NCBI RefSeq assembly: GCF_030685535.1
Contig: NZ_CP131599.1
Location: 806,001 to 870,000, forward strand
DNA: 64,000 bases
Source: Photobacterium leiognathi
GTDB taxonomy: Bacteria > Pseudomonadota > Gammaproteobacteria > Enterobacterales > Vibrionaceae
Direction: 5' to 3'
Below the pieces are notes generated by a model that worked only from the letters and a program-made list of their open reading frames with translations, did no database searches and had not been told where the DNA came from. Shown here in pieces: positions 6,085-63,611 of the stretch; position 1 is the first letter of the stretch, and every line of letters begins with the position of its first letter. Made by a program: the position numbers and the translations under genes.

Positions 6085-7263
6085 ATGCAAATAGTTGATA
6101 AGAGCAAAGAGGATAAAATCCCTGCTATCTTACGTTTGGGATTTCGGCCGTTCTTTCTTGGTGCCAGCACATTTTCTGTATTAGCTATGGTTATTTGGGC
6201 ACTCTTCTGGTCTGGTCAATCTCAATTCTCTAGTATTATGTATTCAAACCCGATTTGGTGGCATAGCCATGAGATGTTATTCGGTTTTTCTGGCGCTATC
6301 ATTATTGGGTTTCTCTTAACGGCGGTTCAAAATTGGACAGGGCAGACTGGCATCAAGGGAACGAAACTGCTTGTGCTTTTTGCTCTGTGGTTATGTGCAC
6401 GCTTAGGCTTAATGTTTGGATCAGTAAGTAGTATTTGGCTATTTGTCGATACAGCATGGATTTTCCTTGCTATGTATTATCTTGCAGTGCCAATTATTAA
6501 GGTTAAGCAATACAGAAACCTATTCTTTGTACCCGTGCTTTCACTATTTGGTATGATGAATGTTAAGTTTCACTTAGTGGCGCTTGGCGCATTACATTCA
6601 TCGATTAGCGCGTTGACGTTACCTATTGTGCTTGTTGTTACCTTAATCACCTTAGTCGTTGGTGGTCGAGTGATCCCATTTTTCACATGGCGTGGTACAC
6701 AAACAGAGCAAATTACGCGTGTTAAAGTGATTGAATTTGCTGCACTAATACCTGTGTGGTTATTGTTATTGGCAACTCTAATGCCGTCTAGCCTGATACC
6801 TGCAAAGTGGGTAGGTGTACTCGCTATTATTACTGCGATGACGAATTTAATTAGATTTAGCCGTTGGCGCAGTTTTTCTACATTAACAAATCCATTGTTA
6901 TGGACTCTGCATCTATCATATTTGTCCTTAATTGTTGGGCTATTAGTACTAGGATTAAGCGAGTTTAGTTCTGTCGTTAATGTGTCTATTGCAATCCACA
7001 TATTGGCAATCGGTGGTATTGGCGGCATGATTTTATCAATGATTTCACGTGTTTCACTGGGGCATACAGGTAGGACATTGAAAGTAAATATGATCATGCA
7101 AGTGGCGTTTATTGCTCTATTTACCTCACTATTAGTGAGAGTTGTTTTAGTCTACGCAATACCAAGTTTAACGATGAACAGTTATGTTTTATCAGCCTCG
7201 CTTTGGGCATTTGCATTTGCAATTTTCGCCATCGTTTATTTTCCTATTTTGACGAAGCCATGA
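6085..7263 (+). CDS. nnrS: NnrS family membrane protein (nitric oxide tolerance)
   Basis: Polytopic inner-membrane protein of the NnrS family, about 12 hydrophobic helices, a haem- and copper-containing type linked to nitrosative-stress tolerance. Visible family features are LGFRPFFLG near the N-terminus, WHSHEMLFGF, and GGRVIPFFTWRGT, supplying histidines and arginines typical of the family. An ATG at 6079 is possible, but TGAGG (6073-6077) sits at the correct distance from ATG 6085, which I choose. It is monocistronic behind the NsrR-like palindrome. Confidence 0.9.
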   Translation: MQIVDKSKEDKIPAILRLGFRPFFLGASTFSVLAMVIWALFWSGQSQFSSIMYSNPIWWHSHEMLFGFSGAIIIGFLLTAVQNWTGQTGIKGTKLLVLFALWLCARLGLMFGSVSSIWLFVDTAWIFLAMYYLAVPIIKVKQYRNLFFVPVLSLFGMMNVKFHLVALGALHSSISALTLPIVLVVTLITLVVGGRVIPFFTWRGTQTEQITRVKVIEFAALIPVWLLLLATLMPSSLIPAKWVGVLAIITAMTNLIRFSRWRSFSTLTNPLLWTLHLSYLSLIVGLLVLGLSEFSSVVNVSIAIHILAIGGIGGMILSMISRVSLGHTGRTLKVNMIMQVAFIALFTSLLVRVVLVYAIPSLTMNSYVLSASLWAFAFAIFAIVYFPILTKP

Positions 7264-7390
7264 GTTGATGGGCATCCTGGTTAAACCTTGTTAATTGATT
7301 TTTTCATTGAACATGAAGGGTTTTATAATCAGTGACATTACAGATTAATCACTCTAAAATAACGCCTCATTCATCAAGAAGAAGACAGTT

Positions 7391-7576
7391 ATGTACAATC
7401 ACACTCCAACGCTCACTCACGAAGAACAGCAAAAAGCAGCAGAGCGTATTCATGAGTTGATGGCTCAAGGTATTAGTAGCGGTGAAGCTATCATGATCGT
7501 AGCTAACCAAATTCGTGAAGAAGATGCTAAACGTCGTGAGGCGGCGGGTGAATCTTTCAGTGATGAAGAAGAGTAA
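7391..7576 (+). CDS. yoaH: UPF0181 (YoaH) family small protein
   Basis: A 61-aa soluble protein closely resembling E. coli YoaH ([27 protein letters not shown]). No catalytic residues are apparent; the acidic C-terminus ends DEEE. Function in the family is unknown. It is a single gene with its own terminator. Confidence 0.9.
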
Positions 7577-7583
7577 TTAAAAG

Positions 7584-7607
7584 AAGAGCTTAGCGGCTCT
7601 TTTTTTA
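7584..7607 (+). terminator. Intrinsic terminator of yoaH
   Basis: The stem AGAGC / GCTCT with a short loop is followed by seven T. Confidence 0.8.
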
Positions 7608-7699
7608 TATCTGAATTCTAGCATTCCAAATAAAAGGCTGTTCAATTATCAAGTTTTGTTATAAAAGATAAATTAGCAGTTATATTTTGGGGTAATGAT

Positions 7700-8224
7700 A
7701 TGAATGACCGTTATTTACAGGCACAAGCATTTGCGAAGGAACGCCATGGTGAACAAAAATATGGAGATTACCCATACTACATTCATCTAGATGCGGTAGC
7801 AGAGCTCGCAAGCCCGTACGGTACCGATGCGATGATTGTTGCCCAACTTCATGATGTTATTGAAGATACAGAAACTACATTTGACGAATTAGCAGATGTA
7901 TTTGGCTACACCATTGCTGATGCAGTTAATTACGTAACTGATGTTAAGTTAGAAGACAGAGCGAAGCGCAAATTAGAGATCAACCAACGTTTATTCTCGC
8001 TTAATCCTGCTGAAGATGCTGCGCGTTTAGCATTGATCGTAAAAGCTTGTGATCGATTAGCGAATGTTCGCTCGAGTAGTAATAGTTCCCGTCGTCATTA
8101 TTTAATGTATCAAGCTGAGCATGAAGCGTTTAAACATGCGGTATTCCGCCCTGGTTTATGTGATGAAATCTGGGATGAATTAGACTCACTAATACATGCA
8201 AAAGACTGTGTTAATTGCTATTAA
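7700..8224 (+). CDS. HD-domain phosphohydrolase, small alarmone hydrolase-like
   Basis: Soluble 174-aa HD-superfamily protein. The metal-binding set is visible: H29 (YYIHL), H51-D52 (QLHDVIEDTETT, with the following ED pair) and a later Asp in KACDRLANVR. This pattern and length match stand-alone SpoT/MESH1-like hydrolases, which remove pyrophosphate from (p)ppGpp or act on related nucleotides. No synthetase domain is present. It stands alone before a strong shared terminator; the substrate cannot be told from sequence. Confidence 0.85.
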   Translation: MNDRYLQAQAFAKERHGEQKYGDYPYYIHLDAVAELASPYGTDAMIVAQLHDVIEDTETTFDELADVFGYTIADAVNYVTDVKLEDRAKRKLEINQRLFSLNPAEDAARLALIVKACDRLANVRSSSNSSRRHYLMYQAEHEAFKHAVFRPGLCDEIWDELDSLIHAKDCVNCY

Positions 8225-36424: not shown

Positions 36425-37231
36425 TTAACCAAGAGTAGGATAGTCGGTATAACCATGGTCATTACCGCCAAATAACGTCGCACCATCCAGTTCTGCCAAT
36501 GGTTGTTGCTGTTGTAGGCGCGATACAAAATCAGGATTAGCCACAAACGGACGTCCAAACGCCACCAAATCCGCATATCCTTTATTTAGCACTTCATCCG
36601 CACGCGCTTGCGTGTAACTGCCAGCAACAATGATCGTATTAGTGAAATACTTACGCAGATCAATTCTAAACTGTTCAGGGATAACTGGTGCATCTTCCCA
36701 ATCCGCTTCCGATAAATGCAGATAACCAATACCACGGGCTTGAAGTTGTTTTGCCGCCTCTAAAATAGTCGGGACAATATCAGGACAATTCATATCTTTA
36801 AAAGTGATGAAGGGCGCAAGTCGAACACCCACTTTATTAGCACCAATGACAAGACTAACGGCATCAACCACTTCTAATAAGAAGCGAATACGGTTTTCTA
36901 TAGTGACACCGTAACCATCTGTACGGTGATTAGAGTTAGTACGTAAAAACTGATCGATAAGATAGCCATTACCGCCATGAATTTCGACACCATCAAAACC
37001 AGCATCAATGGCACGTTGCGCAGCATAAGCAAAATCCGCAACAACCCGATCAATATCCGCTTGTGTCATTGCTCTTGGCTCAACGCAATCGACCATGTTG
37101 CCATTGCCTTGTTCATCCGCAATCCACACCTTAGTTTCAACAGGTCTAAGTGCCGATGGCGCAATCGGCTTATCACCATTTTGAAATACAGGGTGAGACA
37201 CACGCCCAACATGCCATAGCTGGCAGAACAT
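36425..37231 (-). pseudogene. 5'-truncated NADH:flavin oxidoreductase (old yellow enzyme) gene
   Basis: 268 residues matching the C-terminal three quarters of NemA-type alkene reductases: LWHVGRVSHP, FDGVEIHGGNGYLIDQF, VGVRLAPF and the GRPFVANPDF phosphate site near the end. Full-length members have about 360 aa, so about 95 N-terminal residues with part of the FMN site are lost. The break abuts the LysR remnant head to head, so one deletion probably removed both 5' ends and the shared promoter. Not expected to give an active enzyme. Confidence 0.85.
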
Positions 37232-37239
37232 GGCCGCGC

Positions 37240-37551
37240 CGTTCTTATGTACCTAATCGCAGTACTAGGCATATCTCTTTAACCGAATCTGGCGCGCTGT
37301 ACCATCAGGCCTGTTTAGAGATCATCGATAGCGTAAAAGAGACAGAAAACTTACTTCAAACCGGTAGCCAAGAAGTGCGCGGAACGCTAAAGATCTCAGC
37401 GCCACGAGACATAGGCAAACAATATATCTCACCAATACCAAGCAGCAAAACCAATGACTACGAGAAAAATCAACTTCTTCATACCATTCCTTGTGTTGTT
37501 ATAAACAGTAAAATCAAACACAGCAATCCTTGCGGTTTAAAAGCGGTTTAA
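37240..37551 (+). pseudogene. LysR regulator gene fragment
   Basis: In frame from about 37240, the residues NRSTRHISLTESGALYHQAC then GTLKISAPRDIGKQYISPI are the middle of a LysR regulator (end of the wing helix and start of the effector domain). The helix-turn-helix before it is missing, and after about 37445 the sequence no longer resembles the family. It lies divergent to the truncated flavin oxidoreductase gene, the normal order for this pair. Confidence 0.75.
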
Positions 37552-38548: not shown

Positions 38549-38920
38549 TAAGGCACCAATGTTAATTCTGGTTTATACGTCTAAAGGTAGCATTTTTTAT
38601 TTAAAAACAAATCAGTTAGAAATACTTTATGCAAAACATATGCATTTAGTAACAAATTCTATAAAGGTCTATAAATTTCTCACTATCAAAGATAAAAAAT
38701 GGTACCTAGGATTCTAAACACTAAGAAATCATGACACCCTACATTGGTGCGCATTATGTACCTTATGTTAAATATGTCTGGTTTTAAGTTAAGTTCATGA
38801 GCAGATCAATATCAACAACTTAGCCTCATCCTAAGCACTTGCCAAAGTTTCGTGATGGGCTTACGATAACTTCACAAAATTAAATTTTGGGTTTTTGTTA
38901 GGTTCATAGAATGCTGACTA

Positions 38921-39021
38921 TTTAACAGTATTCTTGATTTACCATAAAATAGGTAATAAACATCAATATAGTTGTTCTGCGAACGCTAAGCATTCTTGTA
39001 CAACTATATTTTGCTATTACC
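38921..39021. repeat. Left attachment-like direct repeat of the island
   Basis: 101 bp repeated at 63510-63611. Shared blocks are TTTAACAGTATT, GATTTACCATAAAATAGGTA and TTGTTCTGCGAACGCT then GCATTCTT, ending ATTACC. Inside is a dyad: AATATAGTTGT (38965-38975) and ACAACTATATT (39000-39010) flank the conserved core. GGTAAT and ATTACC form an outer dyad. It ends 57 bases before ginA. Taken as the left end of the integrated element. Confidence 0.8.
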
Positions 39022-39077
39022 TTGGTGACTTAAACAAGGATCTCAAATTAAATACTTTGAGGGCTTTCGTTAGGTTC

Positions 39078-40592
39078 ATGGAATATACAAACTTACATCT
39101 CAAAAGAAATGGTCAATGGACTCATGTCATGGTTGATAATGAGACCACCTTGCCTTCGATGTTTCTCTCAATCTATGGGTTAAACGAGCTATCCAAGAGA
39201 GCTCTGGGAACCCAAGAAAATGCTATGGTGTCGTTGCGTTTTTTTTATGTGTACTACTACAAGAAGCACAAGCGAACTTTCGATTTTGACTTCTATCGCA
39301 GCAAGTATGACGTTTCCCGCTTCATAGATGAGCTTGATGGTTTCTTTTACTACCTACTTGGCAAGCAACATCTTAACAATGAGTCAGACATACTTGGTCT
39401 CGGGTTCTTTGGCACTGTCATTTCCAAACACAACAAGATCACTTATGGCGGCCACATTCGCGCAGTTGGGCGATTCTTCAAATATCTCAACCTAAGGTAT
39501 ATGAACGTCAGGTTTCAGGATTTGTCACCTGCTGACGCCCACGATATACACAAAAACAACGATAAGGCGCTTTCTGCTAAGATCAAGTCATTCAGTGATT
39601 TGGAGGTGTCGAGTAATGAGCCAGCCAATCGATATAAAAGCATCACTGATTTGCAAAATATAGAATTGAACAACATGCTCATACCCTCTACTCCAGAGTT
39701 TACCGATGTGGATACAGGGGAAGTTTATGAGGCGGTCATCAATCCACAAAACCCATTTAATGATGGGTTTGAGCAATATCGTAACTACTTAATACACAGG
39801 CTAATGTACACCTATGGGCTTCGCGTGGCTGAGTGCTTATTGCTGACGAAGGATTCTATTGGGCCAACGTTACCAGATGCTCGGGGGGATGTGCATTACA
39901 TCCTTATTGTTCAGAACCTTCCTGACGATATCGAAGATCCAAGGAAGCGTCCACCTTCGTTAAAGACGGCGAACTCTTACCGCCATATCGAGCTGGATGT
40001 GGATGATTACAGCCTATTGACGATTTATATCGAAAGTTATCGTGATTCACTTTTTGAAGAAAAAGAAATGGATGACCACGACGTCTTATTTATTAAGAGT
40101 ACGGGTAAGTTGACTCCGTTAACTTACGATGCCGTTAGGACTTTTTACAAGAACAAAATCGATCCTTCTTTTATCGTACTTCACCCCTACTACCGAAGTG
40201 AGAAGAAGCGCAATATTGATTCCATGGTCATGCTTACCCCTCATGTGGGTCGTCATACTTGGGCATATATGACTTTAGAATACATCTATAACGATTTGCT
40301 GAAGGAGGAGCTAAGGCTATCTAAAGATTATGGTATCACTTCGAGGATGAAGGGACTCCTTGATGCAGCCGCTGATCAGCTTAGGGTATTAGGTGGGTGG
40401 TCTGAAACTAGTACGATGCCTATACGATATGCCAGACGATTCATCGAAATTGTTGCGAATCGTAGCAACCTAGGCAGAACAAAACAATCCAATCAGTATG
40501 TGGCTGTCCCTGAAGCGATAACCAATACGAATAATGACAACACTTATACATTCGACGTGTTAGATGATGAGGGCTTTGATGAATTCTTATAA
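39078..40592 (+). CDS. ginA: GinA-like tyrosine recombinase
   Basis: A 504-aa recombinase, first gene of a four-gene operon typical of GInt islands. Catalytic residues are visible: Arg near 249 (TYGLRVAECLLL), HxxR near 389-392 (TPHVGRHTW) and Tyr near 451 (MPIRYARRF). The frame is open back to 38934 through the attachment repeat, but alignment with the second copy at 58221 (YTNLH shared near the start) indicates ATG 39078. It overlaps ginB by 14 bases. Expected to act with GinB, GinC and GinD in integration and excision. Confidence 0.85.
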   Translation: MEYTNLHLKRNGQWTHVMVDNETTLPSMFLSIYGLNELSKRALGTQENAMVSLRFFYVYYYKKHKRTFDFDFYRSKYDVSRFIDELDGFFYYLLGKQHLNNESDILGLGFFGTVISKHNKITYGGHIRAVGRFFKYLNLRYMNVRFQDLSPADAHDIHKNNDKALSAKIKSFSDLEVSSNEPANRYKSITDLQNIELNNMLIPSTPEFTDVDTGEVYEAVINPQNPFNDGFEQYRNYLIHRLMYTYGLRVAECLLLTKDSIGPTLPDARGDVHYILIVQNLPDDIEDPRKRPPSLKTANSYRHIELDVDDYSLLTIYIESYRDSLFEEKEMDDHDVLFIKSTGKLTPLTYDAVRTFYKNKIDPSFIVLHPYYRSEKKRNIDSMVMLTPHVGRHTWAYMTLEYIYNDLLKEELRLSKDYGITSRMKGLLDAAADQLRVLGGWSETSTMPIRYARRFIEIVANRSNLGRTKQSNQYVAVPEAITNTNNDNTYTFDVLDDEGFDEFL

Positions 40593-42210
40593 TGTTCAGA
40601 TGCAAGGAAGCACACAAACAGAACAGCTGAGCCCGCTTCTCACTCCCGAGCAGAAGGCTTGGGTTAACTCCACTATCCTACCTACACAGGTATTCCTGAA
40701 AGGTGCTACTGAATTCGATGACCAATGGCTTAACCTTAAAGGCGATTGGCGTTTCCGCTTTTCAGGCGCTAACAGGAGTATCCCATTTGTTAATGGCAAA
40801 CATTTTAATAGCTTGAAACCAGAGATTTTAAAACTCGTTAAGTTGGTGTCCGTTGAGTATATAAAAGAGAACTCTGCCTCTGTTGTTGATGATGCTGCAA
40901 GATACATTGCTATCACTTTTTCTCAAGTTGATGCCATCACACGTGAAAGTTTACTTTCGAAATTGCGCTCGATAGTTGCCAACCCTGAAAGAAATCACAG
41001 TGATATCTCGCAGTTTTATTTCACCCTATTTTGCCTAAGAGTACTCGATCGTAAGGATTTCTTCGAGAGTTCTGATGAAAAGGCAGACTTGGAAGAATTA
41101 TTACTTGAGGTGCCACGTCCAAGGAATGGTAATTGGGGTGTCTATCAAAACCTAGATAATGTGATACCTAGTGAGGTCTGCCACATGATTGAAAGTGGTA
41201 TCCAACGCTGGGCGTCAAAATTAACGCCTCAATTGAAAACTAAGGAGGAAAAAATTGCACATTTACATACAATTAAGGAGATGATTAACCTAGATAAGCT
41301 AAGTGATTGTGTGATAACAGGCATTGTTTACTATGTTGGAATGCGCCCTGTCCAGTTAGGTAAAACGGCATGTGGAGACATTGTTGTTGATACTCAAAAT
41401 GAGAATGGCAACCGCTTCTCAATCCTTGTTCCATATGCAAAGAAATCAAAACTCACCATTGACCGTATTCGTGTGGCAATCCCTGACGAACTTGGGAAGT
41501 TAATTTTACTTTATAAGCGCCTGAAGGGACTGAGTGATGAAGATTCCTTGCTTCCAAAGAAAAGTACTTCAATCAAGCCAGTGAATGATGCGATCAAGCG
41601 TATGCTACTACTATTCTCACCAGATGAAATCAAAAAAGCAGTAGCTGAAGAAGATTACGAGCTACCTTCATACACAGCAAGCCTTTTCCGCCATAACGTT
41701 GGTCACTCGATGGCTATGAATGGCGCTAGTGCTACTGAGATTGCCTACATTCTAGGTCAGTCTTCACTTGTTGTTGCCGAACGCTATGTTGCTGCCACTC
41801 CAGATATAGCAGATATTCGTGAGCAAGCCTTAGGCCGCAATCCTGTATTTAAAAATATGCTTATTTTAATGATGACAGGTGACGTGGTTCATAGTTCAGA
41901 GTGGAAAGGTCGCAAGGTTGCTTGCACCATTGGTGAACGACTTCACTGCCACATGGGTGGATGTAGTTACGAAGAGTCTGCCTGCCCTTTCTCTCAGGGG
42001 CGTGCTTGTTATGGCTGTTTATATTTCAGACCATTCTCTGATGGTCACCATGAAGCAGTCCTCAGCTCCTTCAATGATGAGATAGATTCAATCCGAAATG
42101 TTGCTGACGACACTAATACGAAAAATCACCCTTTGCTTGTTGAGCTTACCCGTTGTAAACAGAATGTGATGCGGGTAATTGCTCGCATTCAAATCATCGA
42201 GGAAAAATAG
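40579..42210 (+). CDS. ginB: GinB-like tyrosine recombinase
   Basis: A 543-aa recombinase. Catalytic blocks: Arg in YYVGMRPVQLGKT, RH in SLFRHNVGHSMAM (Ser at the usual first His), and Tyr in VVAERYVAATPDI. The C-terminus has a Cys/His cluster (CTIGERLHCHMGGCSYEESAC, then CYGCLYF) that may bind zinc. GAGGG before ATG 40579 lies within the ginA end, so translation is coupled. The substituted His is common among accessory recombinases of such trios. Confidence 0.82.
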   Translation: MNSYNVQMQGSTQTEQLSPLLTPEQKAWVNSTILPTQVFLKGATEFDDQWLNLKGDWRFRFSGANRSIPFVNGKHFNSLKPEILKLVKLVSVEYIKENSASVVDDAARYIAITFSQVDAITRESLLSKLRSIVANPERNHSDISQFYFTLFCLRVLDRKDFFESSDEKADLEELLLEVPRPRNGNWGVYQNLDNVIPSEVCHMIESGIQRWASKLTPQLKTKEEKIAHLHTIKEMINLDKLSDCVITGIVYYVGMRPVQLGKTACGDIVVDTQNENGNRFSILVPYAKKSKLTIDRIRVAIPDELGKLILLYKRLKGLSDEDSLLPKKSTSIKPVNDAIKRMLLLFSPDEIKKAVAEEDYELPSYTASLFRHNVGHSMAMNGASATEIAYILGQSSLVVAERYVAATPDIADIREQALGRNPVFKNMLILMMTGDVVHSSEWKGRKVACTIGERLHCHMGGCSYEESACPFSQGRACYGCLYFRPFSDGHHEAVLSSFNDEIDSIRNVADDTNTKNHPLLVELTRCKQNVMRVIARIQIIEEK

Positions 42211-42220
42211 GAACAACAAG

Positions 42221-44764
42221 ATGCTTGAACAAAGGAATAATCTGACAGCCTACATAGAAAAGTTCCGTGAAAAATTTGACGCTCGATTAACTGAGTATAA
42301 TGCTACTGGAAAAATGGAATGGGATGCACCCTATTGGTACTTCGGTGAAAAAGGCGTTGCGTGGCTCAAAGAAACTAAACACCATGGCTTTAACTTTTCC
42401 CTTATTTCCAAGAAATACCAAGGACTAACAGAGCTGGCGATTTCAAATGAGTATCAATCGTTTATGCGTGCCTATCACATGCAGGTAGTCTGTTCTACGG
42501 ATGGACTTCCTTCAGGTTCGAAATTAAATAAAGACTTGCAAGTCATGAAGCGTTGGTATTTCGAGATGGTCGAGATAACTGGGCAAACACATCCGATGTA
42601 CCTCACTGCTGAGATCATTTATGCAGCAATGGATCGGCATAAAGAGAATTCAAAAAGCCCTCCCAATGTTAGTGACTATTGTGATGTTGCTGTAACTATT
42701 ATTAAAAACATTCGCAGATACAACCTGACCATAGTGAATATTGAAGTTGCTAACAGATACCCTTGTCGCAATCAGAGTAACGGTACGAAGCAGAGGCGTA
42801 AAGCAGTAGATGCAAGCCCAGAGCACACAAACGATGAAAAGTTGATTTCTATACGTGCATTCATGTGTGTAATTGAACTGATAATGCTTGCTGAAAAAGA
42901 TTCGGAACGTATATTTTACAATATGCTCCTACTAGGTATTATCTGTGGATTCCGATTTCAAGAGTTATTACTCCTGACAGAAGACTCCCTCGTTAAACGG
43001 GACATTACCGATAAGGATAAGCGGAAGCACGCTATTGACAATGGTTGGCCTTCATATCGTTTAGGTATTGAGTATCTTGGTGCCAAACAAGCAGGCTGGC
43101 GTATCCATTGGCTGGCACCAAGTTCATACCCTGTTGTTGAAGCTATCTTCGACAATGTGAAGGCGCTTACAGCTGAAAGCCGTAAGATGCTTAAAGGTTA
43201 CAGAGCGTCGGCCTTTACAGATTTTCTGCCTGATGAAATCAAGGAGCTACCAGATGAATTGATAGAGTGTCGTGATTTGGTTGGCCTAATGTTTACTGGT
43301 ACTGGTGGTGTCCGTAAAGCAGTAAGCAAAAGCATTATCAACTCGATTAAGAAGTTCTCAGGACATGAGCCAAAGGTAATCCCTGTTAACAACCAATTGA
43401 AGAATAACTACTTCACCAAAGGTCAACTAAATGACTATGTATACCAAAGATATGCAGCCATCAAGAACTTTGAAACGGGTCACCAGTGTGTAATCTCTGC
43501 TAAAAACGGTGGTGATTGGGAGCACTTCAATTACGAAGATTTGCTATTTATTGCCCCTAAAGGGAGCTTCTTTATCGATTTTGATTTGGTATCTTTGAGG
43601 CACCCTGTGCCGTTAGATGAGAAGTCTGTTGAGGCATGGCTGGGTGGCGCAAAGAACCGAAAGTCTATCTTTGATTCTTACGACTTACATGAGGATGATG
43701 GCTCTAGGATTGAGCTCAAGAAGCATGTTCCTCGTCACAACATCAATACATTCCTTGCTATTGCGGGTGTAACAGATCATATCCAAGCAATTTTAATGGG
43801 ACGTGTTGATATCACGCAGAATAAGCATTATCAACACCAAGAAGAGTCTCAGGAGTACCGGACTGCTGCTCTAGCTGTGACAGCTCTTGAAAAAACAGTG
43901 GAAGAGAACAAGAAAGCCCTGTCCAAAGATGACCAGCTATCCCTGTTTGATTCTGAGGGTGAGCCAACACCGCCTCTCCCACAAAAATCTCTGGTGCCAA
44001 AGGAGCAAACGGCTGTAAGTCGTCGTATGGCAGCCATGGCTAAAGCGGCAGATAACCGCCCTCGTTCAGGGGTTGATGCCGTTAAAAAGAGTGCAGCTAT
44101 GATGGTTGATCCAAAGCTAAGCATGGAGCTCAATATGAAGCAAAACATGCAGACCTATGGTGAGACTCCAGCAGAAGTTGCCCACTTTGTTAAGGGAGCT
44201 ATGTCTGACAATTTTGTACCTGACATTAAAAAAGCCCATGACAAATTAATCGAACAAAAACAAGCTGCTGCGGCAAAAGCCCTGCTAGAACGCCATGCAA
44301 AGTTACATCCTCTCGATTTTGGTAGTTGTACAAGGGATGTTGCTCGCTGGGGCTGCCCGCATGCCATGAAATGTCAAACAGGTTTACCTTGTGGCTACTT
44401 CTCCCTGACAAGCCGTATGGGCGAAGAAGTCGAGATTTCACGGAGCTTAGTAGCCAAGAAGAAAGACATCGTTGTGCTTCGGAAGCTGCATGAAGAAGAC
44501 CCCTCTTTCGAGCTTGCATTAAAAGAACAGGAAGAAGCCCTGATTGTTTTGGAGGCATTTGAGAGTAAGGCCATTGACTCGCTTAAGCCCAAAAAACTTG
44601 TATCACTTCTTTCCGAAGACAAAGACAACCCATTGGCTCGAATCATCGAACGCGCAAATGAACAAACCGTGATTGGTAAAAAGCCAAAAACCCTTGCCGA
44701 CATGTTCTTCATTGAGCAAAAACGGATGGAGAGAGATGCGAATAAGGAAGCCCAAGATGCCTAA
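42221..44764 (+). CDS. ginC: GinC-like large tyrosine recombinase
   Basis: An 847-aa protein with AGGA before ATG 42221. The catalytic domain lies in the middle: Arg in IICGFRFQELLLL, HxxR in HVPRHNINTFL and Tyr in QNKHYQHQEE. A long C-terminal extension has charged helices and a Cys cluster (FGSCTRDVARWGCPHAMKC, then LPCGYF). The size and position fit the third recombinase of GInt operons. It starts 10 bases after ginB and overlaps ginD by 8. Confidence 0.82.
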   Translation: MLEQRNNLTAYIEKFREKFDARLTEYNATGKMEWDAPYWYFGEKGVAWLKETKHHGFNFSLISKKYQGLTELAISNEYQSFMRAYHMQVVCSTDGLPSGSKLNKDLQVMKRWYFEMVEITGQTHPMYLTAEIIYAAMDRHKENSKSPPNVSDYCDVAVTIIKNIRRYNLTIVNIEVANRYPCRNQSNGTKQRRKAVDASPEHTNDEKLISIRAFMCVIELIMLAEKDSERIFYNMLLLGIICGFRFQELLLLTEDSLVKRDITDKDKRKHAIDNGWPSYRLGIEYLGAKQAGWRIHWLAPSSYPVVEAIFDNVKALTAESRKMLKGYRASAFTDFLPDEIKELPDELIECRDLVGLMFTGTGGVRKAVSKSIINSIKKFSGHEPKVIPVNNQLKNNYFTKGQLNDYVYQRYAAIKNFETGHQCVISAKNGGDWEHFNYEDLLFIAPKGSFFIDFDLVSLRHPVPLDEKSVEAWLGGAKNRKSIFDSYDLHEDDGSRIELKKHVPRHNINTFLAIAGVTDHIQAILMGRVDITQNKHYQHQEESQEYRTAALAVTALEKTVEENKKALSKDDQLSLFDSEGEPTPPLPQKSLVPKEQTAVSRRMAAMAKAADNRPRSGVDAVKKSAAMMVDPKLSMELNMKQNMQTYGETPAEVAHFVKGAMSDNFVPDIKKAHDKLIEQKQAAAAKALLERHAKLHPLDFGSCTRDVARWGCPHAMKCQTGLPCGYFSLTSRMGEEVEISRSLVAKKKDIVVLRKLHEEDPSFELALKEQEEALIVLEAFESKAIDSLKPKKLVSLLSEDKDNPLARIIERANEQTVIGKKPKTLADMFFIEQKRMERDANKEAQDA

Positions 44765-45233
44765 AGTACGCAATAAAGATGACAAAGTAATTCAAGGCAA
44801 AGAGCTTGATAACTACATCATGAGTGAGCTTCTTGCCATGGAACGTGAGGGGCTTGAAAAAGCCCCTATCCAAGCCTCAACGTTACATGCTCGCTTGAAG
44901 GCCAAAGGTATCATTAATGGCAAGCTAAGCACTTTAAGTACTCCTACTCGAAAGAAAATGATCGAGGAAGCCAAGCAGCGTCAGCACAGCAACAATGAAC
45001 TATCAGATGTTGAACTGGCAATGCTGGCTCAAGGCCGGACAGGTGCAGCCTATATCAGCAAAGCTGAGCGCCTAGAGAAAGAGCTGAATAGTTTTAAAGC
45101 TAAATATGACAGGAACATCTTTGCTGTTATGGACATCATCGCTCAGATTGATGCAGTAAGCCCATTTAATGTTGAAGACTTACTTGCAAAAGACTTAATC
45201 CGCGAGCTATCCGCCAAGAAAAGGCATAAGTAA
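44757..45233 (+). CDS. ginD: GinD-like small protein of the recombinase operon
   Basis: A 158-aa basic protein, mostly helical, with a coiled-coil-like stretch (KAERLEKELNSFKAKYDRN). AAGGAAG 6 bases upstream fixes ATG 44757 within the ginC end. Similar small proteins close ginABCD operons, where all four genes are reported to be needed for movement. No enzymatic motif seen; probably an architectural or directionality factor. Confidence 0.75.
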   Translation: MPKVRNKDDKVIQGKELDNYIMSELLAMEREGLEKAPIQASTLHARLKAKGIINGKLSTLSTPTRKKMIEEAKQRQHSNNELSDVELAMLAQGRTGAAYISKAERLEKELNSFKAKYDRNIFAVMDIIAQIDAVSPFNVEDLLAKDLIRELSAKKRHK

Positions 45234-49887: not shown

Positions 49888-49902
49888 TTAAAGAAAAACA
49901 CA

Positions 49903-50264
49903 TAACAGTATATTAATAAGCATTCTTACTTTCGCGCAAAAATACACGCATAAAAGACCTTTATCATACTAGATATAATCTATATATATCATGAAGTTGA
50001 TAACAGTTTTTCACGCCTGACGCCAATGAGAGGATGTGAAAAGTAAGAATTGTATTTAATCAGTCTTATTAAATACAAACTGAAATATTAAATGATTTGA
50101 TTTTCAATTAGTTATGATTTCACTTCTGTTTTTAACAAGAAATATTTCTTATTAAAAACAGAACTAAAGCGATAAAATCACCACGTTTCATTATAACTGT
50201 TCATATAAACAGTAAATAAAACTAATCCAAAACCACGTTAATAAAAAATGAATGAGTATTTGAT
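49903..50264 (-). repeat. Array leader, copy 1 (attI-like)
   Basis: A 362-bp block nearly identical to 57327-57690. It starts at TAACAGTATATTAATAAGC, the point where the first cassette is joined. It contains ATTCTTACTTT / AAAGTAAGAAT inverted repeats and a long hairpin with arms near TCTGTTTTTAACAAGAAA. No gene. Its place upstream of the first cassette suggests it carries the array promoter and an attI-like site. Confidence 0.7.
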
Positions 50265-50305
50265 CTAGCAAGTTTTGGGGCATTTCTGCTAAGAGGCTCG
50301 GGCTT

Positions 50306-57309: not shown

Positions 57310-57326
57310 ATTCACCTCTTGAAAAC

Positions 57327-57690
57327 TAACAGTATATTAATAAGCATTCTTACTTTCGCGCAAAAATACACGCATAAAAAATCTTTATCATACTAGATAT
57401 AATCTATATATATCATGAAGTTGATAACAATTTTTCACGCCTGACGCTCAATGAGAGGATGTGAAAAGTAAGAAATGTATTTAGTCAGTCTTATTAAATA
57501 CAAACTGAAATATTAAATGGTATAATTTTCAATTGGTTATGATTTCACTTTCTGTTTTTAACAAGAAATATTTCTTATTAAAAACAGAACTAAAGCGATA
57601 AAATCACCACGTTTCATTATAACTGTTGATATACACAGTAAATAAAACTAATCCAAAATCACGTTAATGCGATATGAATGAGTATTTGCT
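57327..57690 (-). repeat. Array leader, copy 2 (attI-like)
   Basis: A 364-bp block near-identical to 49903-50264, again directly upstream of the first cassette and starting TAACAGTATATTAATAAGC. The same hairpins are kept; differences are scattered single bases and short indels. No gene. Confidence 0.72.
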
Positions 57691-57940
57691 CTGAATGATA
57701 ATGGGGCAAAAGTGAGTTTCAAACTTTGTTGTCACACTTTTCTTTGTTAGCCATGTTGATACACCTTAAGTTTCGATCTTTAATGATCTCAGACAGCTTA
57801 GCGCTCTGAAAGTTAGCTATATAACTAACATTTGGTCAGGGTTCCTAGGCACCATGGAGAGTAGAGATACGCATTTTGCGTATTTAGGTTAGATGCTCAT
57901 TGATTTGGTTGCGGATAACCCAGTGACCAACACCACGTAG

Positions 57941-57976
57941 CTCCACATTCTCAGTTACAACAGAGTGTGGAGTTTT
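57941..57976 (+). terminator. Possible terminator hairpin
   Basis: CTCCACA / TGTGGAG stem with an 18-base loop and a TTTTT tail, in the otherwise gene-free stretch 57691-58000. Confidence 0.5.
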
Positions 57977-57999
57977 TAGCGAGGCAAACTGAATTTCTT

Positions 58000-58220
58000 T
58001 GTGACTAATCTCACAAATTTGATTTATGAACTTCATGAACCTAAATTTCTTTTCTGTGCATTTTTTGTACTGTGATTCATGACTTCATGAACTAAAATGT
58101 GGTTAATGAATGCGTGCTCCCTGCCCCGTTTAACATAAAATCTAAAAAGTACAGTCACTTAGATGCATTTTATGTCACTCACTCACTCACGCACTTCACC
58201 GAAACCCAGAATAGTTAAAT
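58000..58220. repeat. Left direct repeat of nested element, with CRP-type site
   Basis: 221 bp upstream of the truncated ginA, repeated in diverged form at 63199-63407. It opens with TGTGACTAATCTCACA (58000-58015), a perfect CRP dyad TGTGA-N6-TCACA. Two TTCATGAAC palindromes follow (58032, 58084). It ends ACCCAGAATAGTTAAATA, right at the ginA start. Confidence 0.7.
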
Positions 58221-59036
58221 ATGGATGAGTTTACGTCTTACACCAACTTACATATCTCAAGAAACGGACAGCTATCGCATGTCATGGTCGATGACGTGAC
58301 CACCCTTCCGTCATTGTTTGTGACTATCTATGGACGGAATGAGCTGAGTAAGAAAAGTTTAGGTATTCAGGAAAACATTTACGCTTCATTGCGCTTCTTC
58401 TATGTCTATTACTTCAAAAAGCACAAGGTAACCTTCGATTACGCCTTCCATAAGGCTGGCTACGATATCTCGGAGTTCATCGATGAGTTTAATGGTTTCT
58501 TCAAGTACCTACTTGGTAAGCAGCACCTCAATAATCTAGAAGATATTGTCGGTCTGGACTTTCTCTACTCCGGGATCACCAAGTCAAACAAGGTTACCTA
58601 TGGCAATCACATAAGGAATGTTAGCGGCTTCTTCCGGTATCTCAACATTCGTTACATGAACACGGCATATCAAGATCTAACGCCACATGAAGCTCACATC
58701 TTCAGCAAGGCAAATCGTGAAAAGCTAGAATACGTGATGAAAGATTTTAACAGCATAGAGGTGGCGCAGAACGCTCCTGTACACAGGTATAAGAGTATCT
58801 CGGAAAAGCAGAATGTTGAGCTGAATAATATGCTTATTCCCTCTACCCCTGCGTTCGCCGATACAGAGACTGGTGAATATTTCGAGGAAGTGGACAACCC
58901 TCAAAACCCATTCAAGGATGCATTCCAGCAGTATCGTAATTACCTTATTCACAGGCTGATGTTCGCCTATGGTTTGCGTGTCGGTGAGGTGCTGTTGGCA
59001 TCTTTGGACTCTATTGGCGAGACGCAGGATGCGTAG
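58221..59036 (+). pseudogene. Truncated second ginA
   Basis: Residues 1-265 align closely with the N-terminal half of the ginA product at 39078 (shared YTNLH, LLGKQHLNN, LNNMLIPSTP, QYRNYLIHRLM, YGLRV). It keeps the first catalytic Arg but loses the HxxR and Tyr parts. Homology ends near DSIG; the last codons and stop come from the DGR template repeat. It marks a second GInt whose remaining gin genes are gone. Confidence 0.85.
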
Positions 59037-59155
59037 TTCGTGTTGCTCGGATTGTTGCTGTTGACGATGCCATTGTTGAGGTTCACGTTGTAATAGTTAG
59101 AACCATCAGGAGTCGCCGACCAATAGTTGTTGTTCGTCGGCCAACCGCGCGCGTT
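59020..59155 (-). repeat. DGR template repeat (TR)
   Basis: Read on the minus strand it is aligned with the 3' end of the lipoprotein gene (59927-60071) and carries 14 AAC/AAT codons, most at positions where the variable copy has other residues. A 37-bp block (59090-59126) is identical in both. Dense AAY codons are the mark of a DGR template, since adenines are the mutated bases. The end abuts truncated ginA; no reverse transcriptase remains. Confidence 0.78.
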
Positions 59156-59336
59156 TGCATTTATTGTTTAACTCGAAGTGTTGCCTTTCGACTCGCTTCC
59201 CTTGAATACCCATAAGGTCATAAATGCCGATAACATACCAGGGCCCACATGTTAACACCTTAACGTTAACATTCTCTGAGCACGACATTGTCGCTATGTT
59301 CCCTGTTGATTTTCCGAGAACCATCTTATTAAAACG

Positions 59337-59828
59337 TTATATCGCTTGCTTGACAGGAATCAACAACCAATCTGATGAAGAGCTTGAAGCTTTCGTCATC
59401 ATCACTTTATTGACGATTGCTTCGGGTAAAAATAATCGAACATATCGACGATTTAACAGATCGTCATCACAAGGGGCACAAGATGATTTATCTTCAATAT
59501 TGTCCATTTGAGCACGCTGCTCTTGCCTCCAAGACTCCCACTCAGAAAAATCGATGATTATTTCTAACTCAATAACAGCCTTTGTACCTATGTCAATTCA
59601 AGCTTGCTTTAATGATTCTATAGGAAGCCCACCATACAACACCTCTCTTCCATTCAATTTCTTAACCTTTTTCCTTAACACCTTCAATGTCGGTAATTGG
59701 TCCTGTTTAGATACCCACTGCTGCCAACCAAAGAGTGATTGCTCATAGAAACGTACAAACATCCCCTCTTTTATGCCAACAATACGTTGACTGCTTTCAA
59801 CCAATGCTAATTTAGTTTCAATATTCAC
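59337..59828 (-). pseudogene. DGR accessory-type gene with in-frame stop
   Basis: From ATG 59828 the frame reads GMFVRFYEQSLFGWQQWV and EVLYGGLPIESLKQA, meets TGA at 59598-59600, and then continues in the same frame for 86 codons (IIIDFSEWESWRQEQRAQ; LLNRRYVRLFLPEAIVNKV) to TAA at 59337. The two parts look like one protein of about 160 aa split by a nonsense mutation. It lies between variable gene and template repeat, the usual position of DGR accessory genes. The family is not named with certainty. Confidence 0.55.
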
Positions 59829-59845
59829 CTATCTTCCCCCTTTTA

Positions 59846-59873
59846 AAAAGTGCCAGATGCAACTCTGACACTT
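59846..59873 (-). terminator. Hairpin after the DGR target gene
   Basis: The stem AGTGTCAGA / TCTGGCACT (one G-U pair) on the minus strand is followed by a T tract. It serves as terminator, and is in the region where DGRs often have a hairpin downstream of the variable repeat. Confidence 0.7.
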
Positions 59874-59915
59874 CAAAAATTAAAAATTAAAACGTTAAAC
59901 TCTAAACGCTCAACT

Positions 59916-61274
59916 TTAAGGATTTGAGACGCAGGATACGTAAATTGCGAAATGGTCGGGAGGGCGGCTGGCGGTGCCGCTACTGGTACTGCGAAGGCTA
60001 ACTAAGTAATAGTTAGAACCATCAGGAGTCGCCGACCAATAGGCGGGGCTGATAGACCAATCGCGCGCGTTAAATCCACCTGAATGTAATGCTGGTTTTA
60101 GCTCAAATAACTCGTCTTGTGTCGGTAAATGCCAGTTCGTCCGTCCGCCGAGACTAAGGGTGTTGTAGGTAGTACATAGTTCATTTGCGTTAGTCCAGTA
60201 GAATTTGTAGAAATCACCAGCTGGGCCGAAAGAATTGGAAGGATAAGTCACAATATCGTCTGTAGCACTTCCGCTAATGCTGTCTAGATAGGCCACTGAT
60301 GGTGAATTGGTAAATAACTTACCGCTACCCGTATCAAAGATATCAATACATGCACCCGCCAAATCCGCACATACATTCACATCCACCATATTACTGGTTA
60401 CACCATCTTTGGTAGCCGTGAGGGTCGTATTACCCTCCTCAACCGCAGACAATAAACCCGCTGATGACACGGTAGCAGTCGCCGTATCGATAGGAGTCCA
60501 CGTCACTGAGTTAGACACGTCAGAGGACGTCGCATCACTGAATGTCGCTGTTGCAGTTAACTGCTGAGTCAGACCTTTTGCTACGTTGACCGAAGGCGTC
60601 ACTTGAATCGATGTAATGACCGCTGCCGACACATTCACATCCACCATATTACTGGTTACACCATCTTTGGTAGCCGTGAGGGTCGTATTACCCACCTCAA
60701 CCGCAGACAATAAACCTGCTGATGACACGGTAGCAGTCGCCGTATCGATAGGAGTCCACGTCACTGAGTTAGACACGTCAGAGGACGTCGCATCACTGAA
60801 TGTCGCTGTTGCAGTTAACTGCTGAGTCTGACCTTTTGCTACGTTGACCGGTGAAGGCGTCACTTGAATCGATGTAATGACCGCTGCCGACACATTCACA
60901 TCCACCGCATTACTCGTTACACCATCTTTGGTGGCTGTGAGGGTCGTATTACCCACGTTAGTCGCGGTAAATACGCCTGGAACATCAAAGCGTCCTACAT
61001 CAGAGTTGCTTGTGTGCCAAGCACTCACGGTAAAATCCGTCAATGTGCGAGATGAACCATCAGAGTAGTGACCAACCGCTTCAAAGGGCTGCTTGTTACC
61101 TACCGCAAGCGTCAATCCACTAACACCTCGTGTTGTTATCGGTGAAGCGGTGATGTCTATACGTTCTAATTTTACGGTTGAATCGGAGAAAGCACCTTCT
61201 GAATTACAAACGGTTAATAGCATTAATAGTGGAAAAATCACGATTGCAAATAGTGATTTAAAATATTTATTCAT
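59916..61274 (-). CDS. DGR-diversified surface lipoprotein with Ig-like repeats
   Basis: A 452-aa protein. Signal with lipobox LLTVC near residue 23. Three BIG2-type Ig-like domains follow (repeats of TSIQVTPS..VNVAKG..TQQLTATATFSDATS and GNTTLTATKDGVTSN). The C-terminal 130 residues are a DUF1566/C-lectin-like domain (GGRTNWHLPTQDELFEL; YWSATPDGSNYY) that ends in the variable repeat and SCVSNP. It overlaps the barrel gene by 4 bases (ATGA), so they form an operon. Probably a displayed binding protein; ligand unknown. Confidence 0.85.
   Translation of the reverse strand: MNKYFKSLFAIVIFPLLMLLTVCNSEGAFSDSTVKLERIDITASPITTRGVSGLTLAVGNKQPFEAVGHYSDGSSRTLTDFTVSAWHTSNSDVGRFDVPGVFTATNVGNTTLTATKDGVTSNAVDVNVSAAVITSIQVTPSPVNVAKGQTQQLTATATFSDATSSDVSNSVTWTPIDTATATVSSAGLLSAVEVGNTTLTATKDGVTSNMVDVNVSAAVITSIQVTPSVNVAKGLTQQLTATATFSDATSSDVSNSVTWTPIDTATATVSSAGLLSAVEEGNTTLTATKDGVTSNMVDVNVCADLAGACIDIFDTGSGKLFTNSPSVAYLDSISGSATDDIVTYPSNSFGPAGDFYKFYWTNANELCTTYNTLSLGGRTNWHLPTQDELFELKPALHSGGFNARDWSISPAYWSATPDGSNYYLVSLRSTSSGTASRPPDHFAIYVSCVSNP
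59927..60071 (-). repeat. DGR variable repeat (VR)
   Basis: The last 48 codons of the lipoprotein gene. It shares 37 identical bases with the template (60006-60042) and the end CTGCGTCTC. Nearly all template Asn codons differ here (for example three AAC become AGC, CCC, GCC). There is a 9-base insertion and roughly as many changes at non-A bases outside the core, so this template is related but perhaps not the direct parent. Confidence 0.75.
60373..60891 (-). repeat. Tandem DNA repeat coding Ig-like domains
   Basis: Two units (60373-60630, 258 bp; 60631-60891, 261 bp) differ at only a few bases and a 3-base insertion. A third unit, from 60892, is diverged. The near identity at DNA level points to recent duplication and allows copy-number change by recombination. 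Confidence 0.9.
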
Positions 61275-61951
61275 AACAATCGATCTGTAGTTTTTGGTGA
61301 AAAGGCCTGTATTTGAGGAGGTACTTTTACAGTGGCAGTCTCTTTAACAGGAGTATCTTCAATAATAGAAGTTGGCGCTGTTTCGACTAACGCTGGTTGT
61401 GTTGTACTGCCAAATGTATAGGTTAAACTGACCAATAATCCATGGCTATCATACTTACCCGTGTTTGAATTACCAATACTGTCAATATATTGATAGCCCG
61501 TTGATAATCGGGCGTTAGGGTTAAAGTGATAGTTAATCCCTACCTCACCGAGAGGAGAAAAACCTGTTGCATCGCTCTCATTTGAAGACAGTTGCGTTTT
61601 TTCCATGTCCCAATAAGCAGCACCAATTCGACCGTATAAACTTAGGTCATCTTGTAGGTACCAATCGTAACGAAGAGCACTTTCAATCAACCAAGTTTTA
61701 ACATTAACCGATGTGGCGTCCGCCTTTAGTTCATCGTGATATTGATAACCTAAATCCCAACTCCAAGAGGGAGCAAACTGTAACCCACCATAGAGACCTA
61801 AAATTGTGCCCTCTGGATTTGAATGGGAATAATTGTCGTCTAGGACCCATTGATAACCACCCTTTACCCCAACAAAAATTTGAGGGGATTCCGTCGCAGC
61901 CAGTATTGGAACGCTGAACAAACCTGTAAGCAATATTGCCTTTTTCATAAT
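61271..61951 (-). CDS. Outer-membrane beta-barrel protein (OmpA-barrel type)
   Basis: A 226-aa protein starting at ATG 61951 (MKKAILLTGLFSVP), which puts the signal peptide at the N-terminus. An eight-strand barrel of OmpA type is suggested by QIFVGVKGGYQWVLDDN, GLYGGLQFAPSWSWDLGYQY and GLLVSLTYTFG. After it comes a 45-residue Pro/Thr-rich tail without an OmpA peptidoglycan domain. Its stop overlaps the lipoprotein start, so the barrel may help expose the DGR-varied lipoprotein. Confidence 0.8.
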   Translation of the reverse strand: MMKKAILLTGLFSVPILAATESPQIFVGVKGGYQWVLDDNYSHSNPEGTILGLYGGLQFAPSWSWDLGYQYHDELKADATSVNVKTWLIESALRYDWYLQDDLSLYGRIGAAYWDMEKTQLSSNESDATGFSPLGEVGINYHFNPNARLSTGYQYIDSIGNSNTGKYDSHGLLVSLTYTFGSTTQPALVETAPTSIIEDTPVKETATVKVPPQIQAFSPKTTDRLL

Positions 61952-61970
61952 TCTCAGATAAGTATATAGA

Positions 61971-61992
61971 TATATAGGTATATACCTATATA
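61971..61992. promoter_or_regulatory. 22-bp perfect palindrome upstream of the barrel operon
   Basis: Halves TATATAGGTAT and ATACCTATATA form a perfect dyad 20 bases upstream of the barrel gene. Possible operator; no candidate regulator is adjacent. Confidence 0.5.
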
Positions 61993-62165
61993 ATACACCT
62001 GCGTGTTGTAAGGTAAATTTCATAAGCGTAACGAAATATTACTGGAAATTTAGGACTGTTTTTGTGGGCATATTTTAGCTATGTTTGGTATGCATCTATC
62101 CACAAACCAGATCTAAGTTTGTCAGGGCAACATATGACATCATTGATGCCTGATGGCACAGGTCG

Positions 62166-62880: not shown

Positions 62881-63198
62881 CATCTCAAAAATCAACGTAC
62901 ATTCTATTTATCAGACTAGGTTCACATGCACTCTGAATGTACTTAACAAATACCTAAACTCTCTCTTTTGAATTTAAGCTTATACTCATCAACTCTGCGA
63001 ACGATGGATATCACTGTTTTATTATCTGAGTAAAATTCAAAAAGTATTCAACTCCCACATTGCATCATTTTTGCTATATTCAATTTAGATTATTATTAGG
63101 TTTATTGCAGATGAGCTTTCAATATCGCTATCATAAATAATAGATTCCTAATTTCCATCAGATAATGATGTGGCTTGGATTAATAGCGTCGATTTCAT

Positions 63199-63407
63199 TG
63201 TGATTAATATCACAATTTAAAACATTAAAGTTCATGAACCTAGGTACCCATTTTTGTATATTTTTTATACGTAGATTAATGAACTCATGAACTAAAACAA
63301 GGTTCATGAATGTAGTTCGACTGCAATATTTAATATTAAGTTAATATATACAGTTACTTGTGTTTTTTTTACTCATAAACCTCACTAAAACCCAGAATAG
63401 TTAAATA
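63199..63407. repeat. Right direct repeat of nested element, with CRP-type site
   Basis: A 209-bp diverged copy of 58000-58220. It opens with TGTGATTAATATCACA (63199-63214), again a perfect CRP dyad. TTCATGAAC and CTCATGAAC are kept, and it ends ACCCAGAATAGTTAAATA. No ginA follows: the match stops exactly where ginA would begin. Confidence 0.7.
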
Positions 63408-63509
63408 GAATGTCTGGGGTAATAATGTTGTTTATAGTTGGAATTTAGTTGTCACACAATCCACACTACTTTACTGATTAAGCGTGCTTTTTAGTTTGTT
63501 ACAGGGTCA

Positions 63510-63611
63510 TTTAACAGTATTGCGGATTTACCATAAAATAGGTAATTACCATTAATAATTCTTGTTCTGCGAACGCTGTGCATTCTTTAACAAGGATTAT
63601 CTGGAATTACC
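63510..63611. repeat. Right attachment-like direct repeat of the island
   Basis: 102 bp matching 38921-39021: TTTAACAGTATT, GATTTACCATAAAATAGGTA, TTGTTCTGCGAACGCT, GCATTCTT and the final ATTACC. The inner dyad arms are ATAATTCTTGTT and AACAAGGATTAT, different in sequence from the left site but again complementary to each other. Confidence 0.8.

What the first reader, a model, noticed from the sequence alone, without database searches (positions are those of the whole stretch)
58221..61951. Decayed diversity-generating retroelement carried as island cargo
A variable repeat at the 3' end of a lipoprotein gene and an Asn-codon-rich template repeat share 37 identical bases; most template AAY codons are changed in the variable copy. 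An accessory-like gene lies between them. The reverse transcriptase expected after the template is gone, replaced at about 59020 by a truncated ginA. The lipoprotein sequence would now be frozen unless a reverse transcriptase elsewhere acts in trans. Changes at non-A bases exist too, so this template is diverged from, or not the direct parent of, the variable repeat.
Basis: partly seen in the sequence, partly recalled or inferred. Interest (0 to 1): 0.9.

Follow-up and report, generated by a model that had tools for sequence, protein, structure and literature searches.

The report
Fossil of a diversity-generating retroelement
A bacterial chromosome carries the remains of a gene-diversifying system whose mutating enzyme has been deleted, leaving its surface-protein gene and unused template behind; close relatives with the enzyme sit on plasmids of related marine bacteria, and several other species show similar leftovers.

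Summary
Confirmed: window 59019-61274 is the wreck of a diversity-generating retroelement (DGR). From the template repeat (TR) to the target's 3' end it is 98.7% identical to DGRs on Vibrio plasmids, where the order is Avd, RT (opposite strand, last codons inside the TR), TR, accessory gene, Ig-like/Lcl_C target, OmpA-type partner: the 'inverted' type published in 2012 (PMC3521204). In 14 relatives, 16-21 of 38-40 TR adenines but 0-3 of 95-97 other bases differ in the VR.

In the window RT and Avd are gone: ginA is cut and fused in frame to the last RT codons. The accessory gene stops at codon 77 of 163, the OmpA domain is missing, the lipobox is altered. No DGR RT or Avd was found elsewhere in the genome.

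The VR is not a child of this TR: 21/38 A and 21/97 non-A changes plus 9 extra bases. Its NNY-rich codons suggest another AAY-rich template, probably via allele exchange.

Stranded targets recur: four other species keep accessory-gene stubs without a close RT or Avd. Ordinary in kind; the repeated loss of the mutator with retention of the target is the interesting part.

The parts
58221..59013 (+). 5' remnant of a ginA-type tyrosine recombinase gene
   Evidence: 66% identical over residues 3-260 to a full-length homolog in G025 and 63% to the window's own copy at 38934
59014..59036 (+). last codons of the lost RT, now the tail and stop of the ginA ORF; overlaps the 3' end of the TR
   Evidence: RT of L010 ends ...CWPETQDA and the window ORF ends ...DSIGETQDA; alignment of the junction
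59019..59153 (-). template repeat (TR), 135 nt, AAY-rich; two substitutions against the L010 TR
59337..59828 (-). accessory gene, broken (in-frame stop at codon 77 of 163); intact copies exist in relatives
59840..59915 (-). 3' flank of the target with a hairpin, shared with L010
   Evidence: DNA fold of 59840-59935 z -2.5
59916..61274 (-). target gene, 452 aa: signal sequence, Big_2 repeats, C-terminal Lcl_C domain; residue before the lipobox Cys is V where G stands in 7 of 7 compared relatives
59926..60069 (-). variable repeat (VR), 144 nt, divergent allele
61271..61948 (-). OmpA-type outer-membrane partner without its C-terminal OmpA domain; its stop overlaps the target's ATG (start codon by my choice; the listed ORF begins at 62023)
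57993..58221 (+). left end repeat of the inner island, up to the ginA start
   Evidence: matches parts of 63192-63407
63192..63407 (+). right end repeat of the inner island
38934..45233 (+). intact four-gene ginABCD-like operon of the outer, neighbouring island
   Evidence: order fits GInt as described in the passages read of PMC5385486 and PMC10214605

Best explanation
The locus is an inactivated 'inverted' DGR that was cargo of a GInt-like island nested beside or inside another such island on a Vibrionaceae chromosome. In working relatives, RT plus Avd copy a TR transcript with errors at adenines, and the cDNA replaces the VR at the 3' end of a surface lipoprotein gene co-carried with an OmpA-type protein (the sequence pattern is shown in relatives; the chemistry is known from BPP-1). 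Here a deletion ran from inside ginA to the last codons of the RT, removing the rest of the recombinase operon, Avd, RT and the natural 3' flank of the TR. This immobilised the island and froze the target. The present VR is a foreign allele, not a product of the surviving TR; most likely it came by recombination with another DGR-diversified target. The accessory gene, OmpA domain and lipobox have since decayed or changed. Shown: anatomy, losses, relatives, A-specificity in relatives. Inferred: a single deletion, frozen state, allele exchange, order of the later losses.
For: DGRs matching 59014-60956 at 89.9-92.7% identity on 14 Vibrio plasmid records (opened); TR-to-accessory block 98.7% identical to L009/L010. 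RT with GLPIGSVTSQ and YMDD, sub-threshold but specific Avd hits for the neighbouring gene. A-specific substitution in 14 of 14 equal-length TR/VR pairs, 10 of them distinct. V. vulnificus GCU-01 carries three plasmids with identical TR but three different VRs. In-frame ginA/RT-tail fusion. The 3 RT hits in the own genome read as non-DGR; Avd matched in 0 of 6 genomes with a target but no RT beside it and in 3 of 3 RT-bearing genomes. None of the other 51 same-genus genomes searched has a match covering the TR. The known type matches the S. baltica OS155 pSbal02 element (PMC3521204 section 15).
Against: A single deletion is not proven; several steps would look the same. The target ORF is still open, so 'dead' cannot be claimed for the protein. 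The donor of the divergent Lcl_C domain was not found. The identity drop from the TR-accessory block to the target's 5' end also occurs between RT-bearing elements, so it is no evidence of a crossover there. Function of the lost TR flank is inferred from BPP-1 only: folding of that flank gave no signal in three relatives and it is not clearly more conserved than the rest of the RT gene. GInts are reported as rare in Vibrio (2.7% of replicons, passage), so the island name is provisional.
Confidence: 0.86

Rival explanations
1. The window VR was written by a different, unsampled TR (about 144 nt, AAY-rich) of a sister DGR acting on this same gene, rather than brought in by recombination.
For: 40 of 49 VR codons end in C or T against 207 of 392 in the rest of the gene, p 1e-4, as expected from AAY codons; the 3' end around the VR stop is identical to relatives (30/30 at 59902-59931).
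Against: Divergence reaches upstream of the VR (about 60072-60115 and 60202-60262), which retrohoming of the VR would not change. The VR of L010 has the same codon bias (36/46), part of it from shared framework codons. No such TR was found: own genome, family genomes searched with the protein domain, plasmids.
Confidence: 0.25
2. The VR is simply the old product of this TR that has drifted since the RT was lost.
For: The change is still enriched at adenines.
Against: Neighbouring DNA differs from L010 by only 1.3%, while the VR has 21 non-A changes in 97 plus 9 extra bases.
Confidence: 0.04
3. The block 59019-59153 is only a duplicated end of a DUF1566/Lcl_C gene and never was a DGR template.
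For: Lcl_C genes without an RT beside them are common: matches at E 1e-10 in 37 of 329 family genomes; RT within the held flank (up to 1.5 kb) in only 4 of the 30 loci examined.
Against: The same sequence is the TR of DGRs with RT, Avd and nearly A-restricted VRs.
Confidence: 0.02
4. The target is still rewritten from time to time in trans by the DGR of a visiting plasmid.
For: The VR 3' end and hairpin are kept; RT-bearing DGRs are plasmid-borne and several can share one strain.
Against: No DGR RT or Avd found in this genome. The present VR (144 nt) is no direct product of any of the 15 TR copies listed outside the window, all 135 nt. The TR in the window lacks its own flank.
Confidence: 0.07

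Closest known systems
'Inverted' DGRs of Shewanella baltica OS155 pSbal02 and Vibrio sp. RC586 (PMC3521204, Group 4)
   Same: Same TR, accessory gene and target type; RT on the opposite strand. The S. baltica OS155 element was fetched here, with its sister in OS117, which also shows the OmpA-type partner; RC586 was only read about
   Different: Window copy has lost RT, Avd and the TR flank, has a broken accessory gene and a divergent VR; it lies on a chromosome-size contig in a GInt-like island, not on a plasmid or beside Tn7-type sequences
Bordetella phage BPP-1 DGR
   Same: TR/VR, Avd, RT, adenine mutagenesis (passages of PMC12875486; its Mtd tail-fibre target is recalled)
   Different: avd, TR and RT together in one operon; phage target instead of a surface lipoprotein; active
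GInt genomic islands (PMC5385486)
   Same: Four-gene recombinase operon at one end, cargo, imperfect end repeats; strains with two or more copies are reported
   Different: Inner copy keeps only part of ginA; DGR cargo was not mentioned in the passages read
[quoted passage not shown]
   Same: Recombinase-rich islands common in Vibrionales (passages)
   Different: SE order is intA-tfp-intB-srap; the window's outer operon has the two proteins with weak integrase hits first and the large no-hit protein third, the GInt order

Membership tests
Inverted-type DGR | AAY-rich TR near a VR at the 3' end of a target gene | tested here: met
Inverted-type DGR | TR-to-VR differences confined to template adenines | tested here: not met
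   window 21/38 A and 21/97 non-A plus a 9-nt gap; nearly so in 14 of 14 equal-length pairs from relatives, 0-3 non-A changes each
Inverted-type DGR | DGR-type RT beside the TR, on the opposite strand | tested here: not met
   absent in the window and not found in the own genome; present in relatives
Inverted-type DGR | Avd-like accessory protein | tested here: not met
   0 matches in G000; 3 of 3 RT-bearing control genomes matched; the NCBIfam model search had no positive control
Inverted-type DGR | common descent of the remaining block with an RT-bearing element | tested here: met
   98.7% over 906 nt with L009/L010
Inverted-type DGR | observed diversification of the target | not testable with these tools
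   one genome, no reads; three VRs on one TR sequence in V. vulnificus GCU-01 suggest it for relatives
GInt island | ginABCD operon | tested here: inconclusive
   outer operon has four genes in GInt order with weak, below-cut-off integrase hits for the first two; inner copy has only part of ginA; no reference GInt protein was compared and catalytic residues were not checked
GInt island | imperfect direct repeats at both ends | tested here: met
   38920-38997/63509-63587 (86%), 57993-58112/63192-63312 (76%) and 58193-58221/63379-63407 (90%); longer than the 10-17 nt given in PMC5385486
GInt island | excision or integration | not testable with these tools
   no experiment

The most novel reading that the evidence does not exclude
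Plasmid DGRs act as travelling variant factories: chromosomes repeatedly capture the diversified target-OmpA pair and lose the mutator, fixing one useful binder. Such stranded targets keep the VR end, so a later visiting plasmid DGR could rewrite them. The window, the only one of the 26 loci without an RT beside the target that still shows the TR, would be the intermediate stage of this capture-and-freeze cycle.
Probability: 0.2. Interest if true: 0.75.

Novelty: new member of a known kind. Interest (0 to 1): 0.45.

Why it matters
It is a fossil of a DGR in which template, target and accessory gene are still side by side while the enzyme is gone, so what was lost can be read. With four further species that keep only the target and an accessory stub, it suggests that losing the mutator while keeping a diversified surface protein is a regular end of DGRs in Vibrionaceae. 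That can be tested by counting stranded targets and asking whether they are under purifying selection.

Tried and rejected
Trans-acting RT in the same genome: rejected for the held assembly. Crossover between the TR block and the target as the source of the VR mismatch: first favoured, dropped because the same identity drop occurs between RT-bearing elements. Donor of the VR domain: not found among plasmids (best place over most of the query 78.5%), 329 family genomes at E 1e-10 (best 65%), 369 class genomes at E 1e-25 (only the own genome matched) or the fetched loci (its only full match, L104, is the window's own DNA). Phage origin: no match to the TR-accessory block in 50,697 phage records and no close RT relative in viral contigs (exact peptide patterns). 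Structured RNA in the lost TR flank: no folding signal (L010 z 1.25, L012 z 1.04, L088 z -0.35; a second L010 stretch 0.13, the window's present flank -1.36) and no extra conservation. No Rfam match at gathering cut-offs in 36000-64000. Fold of the target's C-terminal domain: model of mean pLDDT 36.7, not used; no PDB sequence relative at E 0.1.

What the A-count alone can show: five targets with no RT beside them also show A-biased differences from the TR (L013, L057, L060, L066, L073; p 1.5e-6 to 0.0065, the last with 32 of 94 non-A changes), presumably because AAY codons mark the sites that vary. The bias in the window is therefore weak evidence; the relatives carry the argument.
Full report
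WHAT IS THERE. On the minus strand, reading from right to left, the window holds an outer-membrane protein gene (61271-61948), a 452-aa target gene (59916-61274), a broken accessory gene (59337-59828) and a 135-nt template repeat (59019-59153). Directly after it, on the plus strand, lies a cut ginA (58221-59013). The VR (59926-60069, 144 nt) is the 3' end of the target. The repeats share 37 of 37 bases in the middle. The target has Big_2 repeats (E 1.5e-26) and an Lcl_C (DUF1566) end, 41.3 bits against a cut-off of 34.9.

RELATIVES. A plasmid search found 131 records with any match to 57600-62100; 20 were listed. Of these 20, 14 Vibrio records match 59014-60956 at 89.9-92.7% identity and two Shewanella baltica plasmids at about 79%. 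The homology starts at the TR's 3' end. Of these 16, four were opened with wide flanks (two Vibrio parahaemolyticus, Vibrio sp. YMD68, S. baltica OS117), eight with 3.5-kb flanks and four not at all. L013, L102 and L103 lie outside the 16. Where an RT is annotated it is on the strand opposite to the target; in L010 the RT is 6721-8025 and the TR 8008-8142, so they overlap. The RT carries GLPIGSVTSQ and YMDD. The SQ dipeptide as a DGR mark stands in a section heading of PMC3521204 seen. The gene before the RT matches the Avd models (PF22296 E 6.3e-5; NF033474 E 3e-6; both below the curated cut-offs). Of 19 plasmid records with an RT match at E 1e-60, 16 are at least 90% identical; four of these 16 (H54-H57) match in three pieces, so RT decay also occurs on plasmids. 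One of the four was opened (L101); its RT motifs lie in two separate frames. No phage record matched the TR-accessory block.

A-SPECIFICITY. A script found 14 loci with TR and VR of equal length. Ten loci were left out beforehand as copies of the window or of loci kept; some of the 14 still share a pair (L009, L010 and L101; L094 and L095; L012 and L100), so 10 distinct pairs remain. In all 14, 16-21 of 38-40 adenines and 0-3 of 95-97 other bases differ, Fisher p 3e-14 to 2.3e-9. One V. vulnificus strain (GCU-01) has three plasmids with the same TR and three different VRs, as expected of a working DGR. L101 has the same VR as L009 and L010 but a broken RT.

THE WINDOW'S OWN PAIR. 21 of 38 adenines and 21 of 97 other bases differ, and the VR has 9 extra bases. 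The TR differs from the L010 TR at two positions. Neighbouring DNA differs by 1.3% from L010, so drift since the loss cannot explain the VR. The divergence is patchy: about 60072-60115 and 60202-60262 also differ from all four aligned relatives, while 59902-59931 and 60142-60171 are identical to L010. 40 of 49 VR codons end in C or T against 207 of 392 elsewhere in the gene (p 1e-4; L010: 36 of 46 against 395 of 826), the trace that AAY codons leave. I take this as an allele from another DGR-diversified target, brought in by recombination; no donor was found.

LOSSES. (a) RT and Avd: in the own genome the RVT_1 profile finds three genes. Two look like group II intron proteins and one is a 427-aa RT with a QG motif (my reading). 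The best match of the DGR RT there has E 2.2e-7 at 29% identity, while relatives in three other family genomes have 93-100% and three more 55-56%. Avd is found in 3 of 3 RT-bearing genomes and in 0 of 6 genomes with a target but no RT beside it, the window's included. (b) The ginA ORF ends in the same residues (ETQDA) as the RT of L010, in frame, so a deletion from ginA to the RT end is the simplest reading. It also took everything 3' of the TR on the template strand. In BPP-1 that spacer recruits RT-Avd and primes cDNA (PMC12875486, passages read); that it does so here is inference. (c) The accessory gene stops at codon 77 of 163. (d) The partner lacks about 325-336 nt with the OmpA domain, and its stop now overlaps the target's ATG. 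(e) The lipobox reads LLTVC where 6 of 7 compared relatives read LLTGC and one reads LIAGC.

ISLAND. A four-gene operon (38934-45233) has the order of GInt islands (passages of PMC5385486 and PMC10214605). End repeats pair 38920-38997 with 63509-63587, and the region 57993-58221, up to the start of the cut ginA, with 63192-63407. I read this as two islands, the inner one carrying the DGR remnant. Full-length homologs of ginA exist in G025 and at 38934. Of 52 genomes searched in the window's genus, none but the own has a match covering the TR. The genus is not named; a genome (G291) whose contig has the length and target of a named Vibrio plasmid falls in another genus of the same family, so Vibrionaceae is near certain and Photobacterium is my guess.

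STRANDED TARGETS ELSEWHERE. The window's Lcl_C domain matches 37 of 329 family genomes at E 1e-10. Of the 30 loci held, one per genome, with up to 1.5 kb on either side, 4 have RT beside the target (G291, G326, G304, G305) and 5 have accessory-gene sequence without RT: the window, G108, G267, G214 and G123; G002 has a 19-residue trace only. In these four other genomes the RT query found nothing (G108, G123) or only matches of E about 1e-5 (G214, G267), and Avd nothing. The accessory fragments begin at different places of the relative's gene in G108 and G267 (293 and 310) but almost the same place in G214 and G123 (245 and 243), so the losses need not all be independent. In G108 DNA that reads as an insertion sequence follows the stub (my reading). 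Assemblies may lack plasmids, so RT may be missed.

LITERATURE. The parent type is known: PMC3521204 describes these inverted DGRs, including S. baltica pSbal02 and Vibrio sp. RC586, 93% identical (section 15 read, passages). Searches for decayed or stranded DGR targets (listings only, openly licensed papers only) showed no title or abstract start about this locus or about stranded targets in Vibrionaceae; the passages of PMC8144416 read name neither Vibrio nor plasmids.

VERDICT. The locus is a decayed copy of a published DGR type. Its value lies in the preserved anatomy of the loss and in the hint that stranded targets recur.

Noticed in passing
window 49896-50266 and 57322-57692: A direct repeat of about 370 bp, 94% identical, within the outer island's cargo; cause unknown.
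   Followed up: no
window 36425-37551: NemA-like ORF matches its family model only from position 100 on and lies against a LysR-like fragment, left of the outer island (LysR is my reading): probably a deletion at the island edge.
   Followed up: no
window 63509-63551: Short motif at the outer island's right end; a 1.6-kb query containing it matched 49 of 52 same-genus genomes, in most of them at this motif; probably a conserved attachment site.
   Followed up: partly
L010 8008-8025: In L010 the last RT codons and stop lie inside the 3' end of the TR on the other strand; in the 55%-identical relatives L087-L089 the RT stops before that point.
   Followed up: partly
G000:C1:127920-128369 and G000:C1:217196-217666: Two more Lcl_C genes on the same contig (42% and 38% identity to the target's end); the TR query found no copy there.
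   Followed up: partly
L096, L097, L098 (V. vulnificus GCU-01) and L094, L095 (V. harveyi NH-LM1): Single strains carry several plasmids each with a copy of this DGR; the three V. vulnificus copies have three different VRs (the target of L098 carries no CDS annotation), the two V. harveyi copies opened share one VR.
   Followed up: partly
targets in L010, L011, L121, window: Number of Big-type repeats differs widely (8, 14, 11 and 3 by motif count), so stalk length also varies.
   Followed up: no
L003 1204-2487: 427-aa reverse transcriptase with a QG motif elsewhere in the genome, not DGR type; possibly a defence-type RT (my reading).
   Followed up: no
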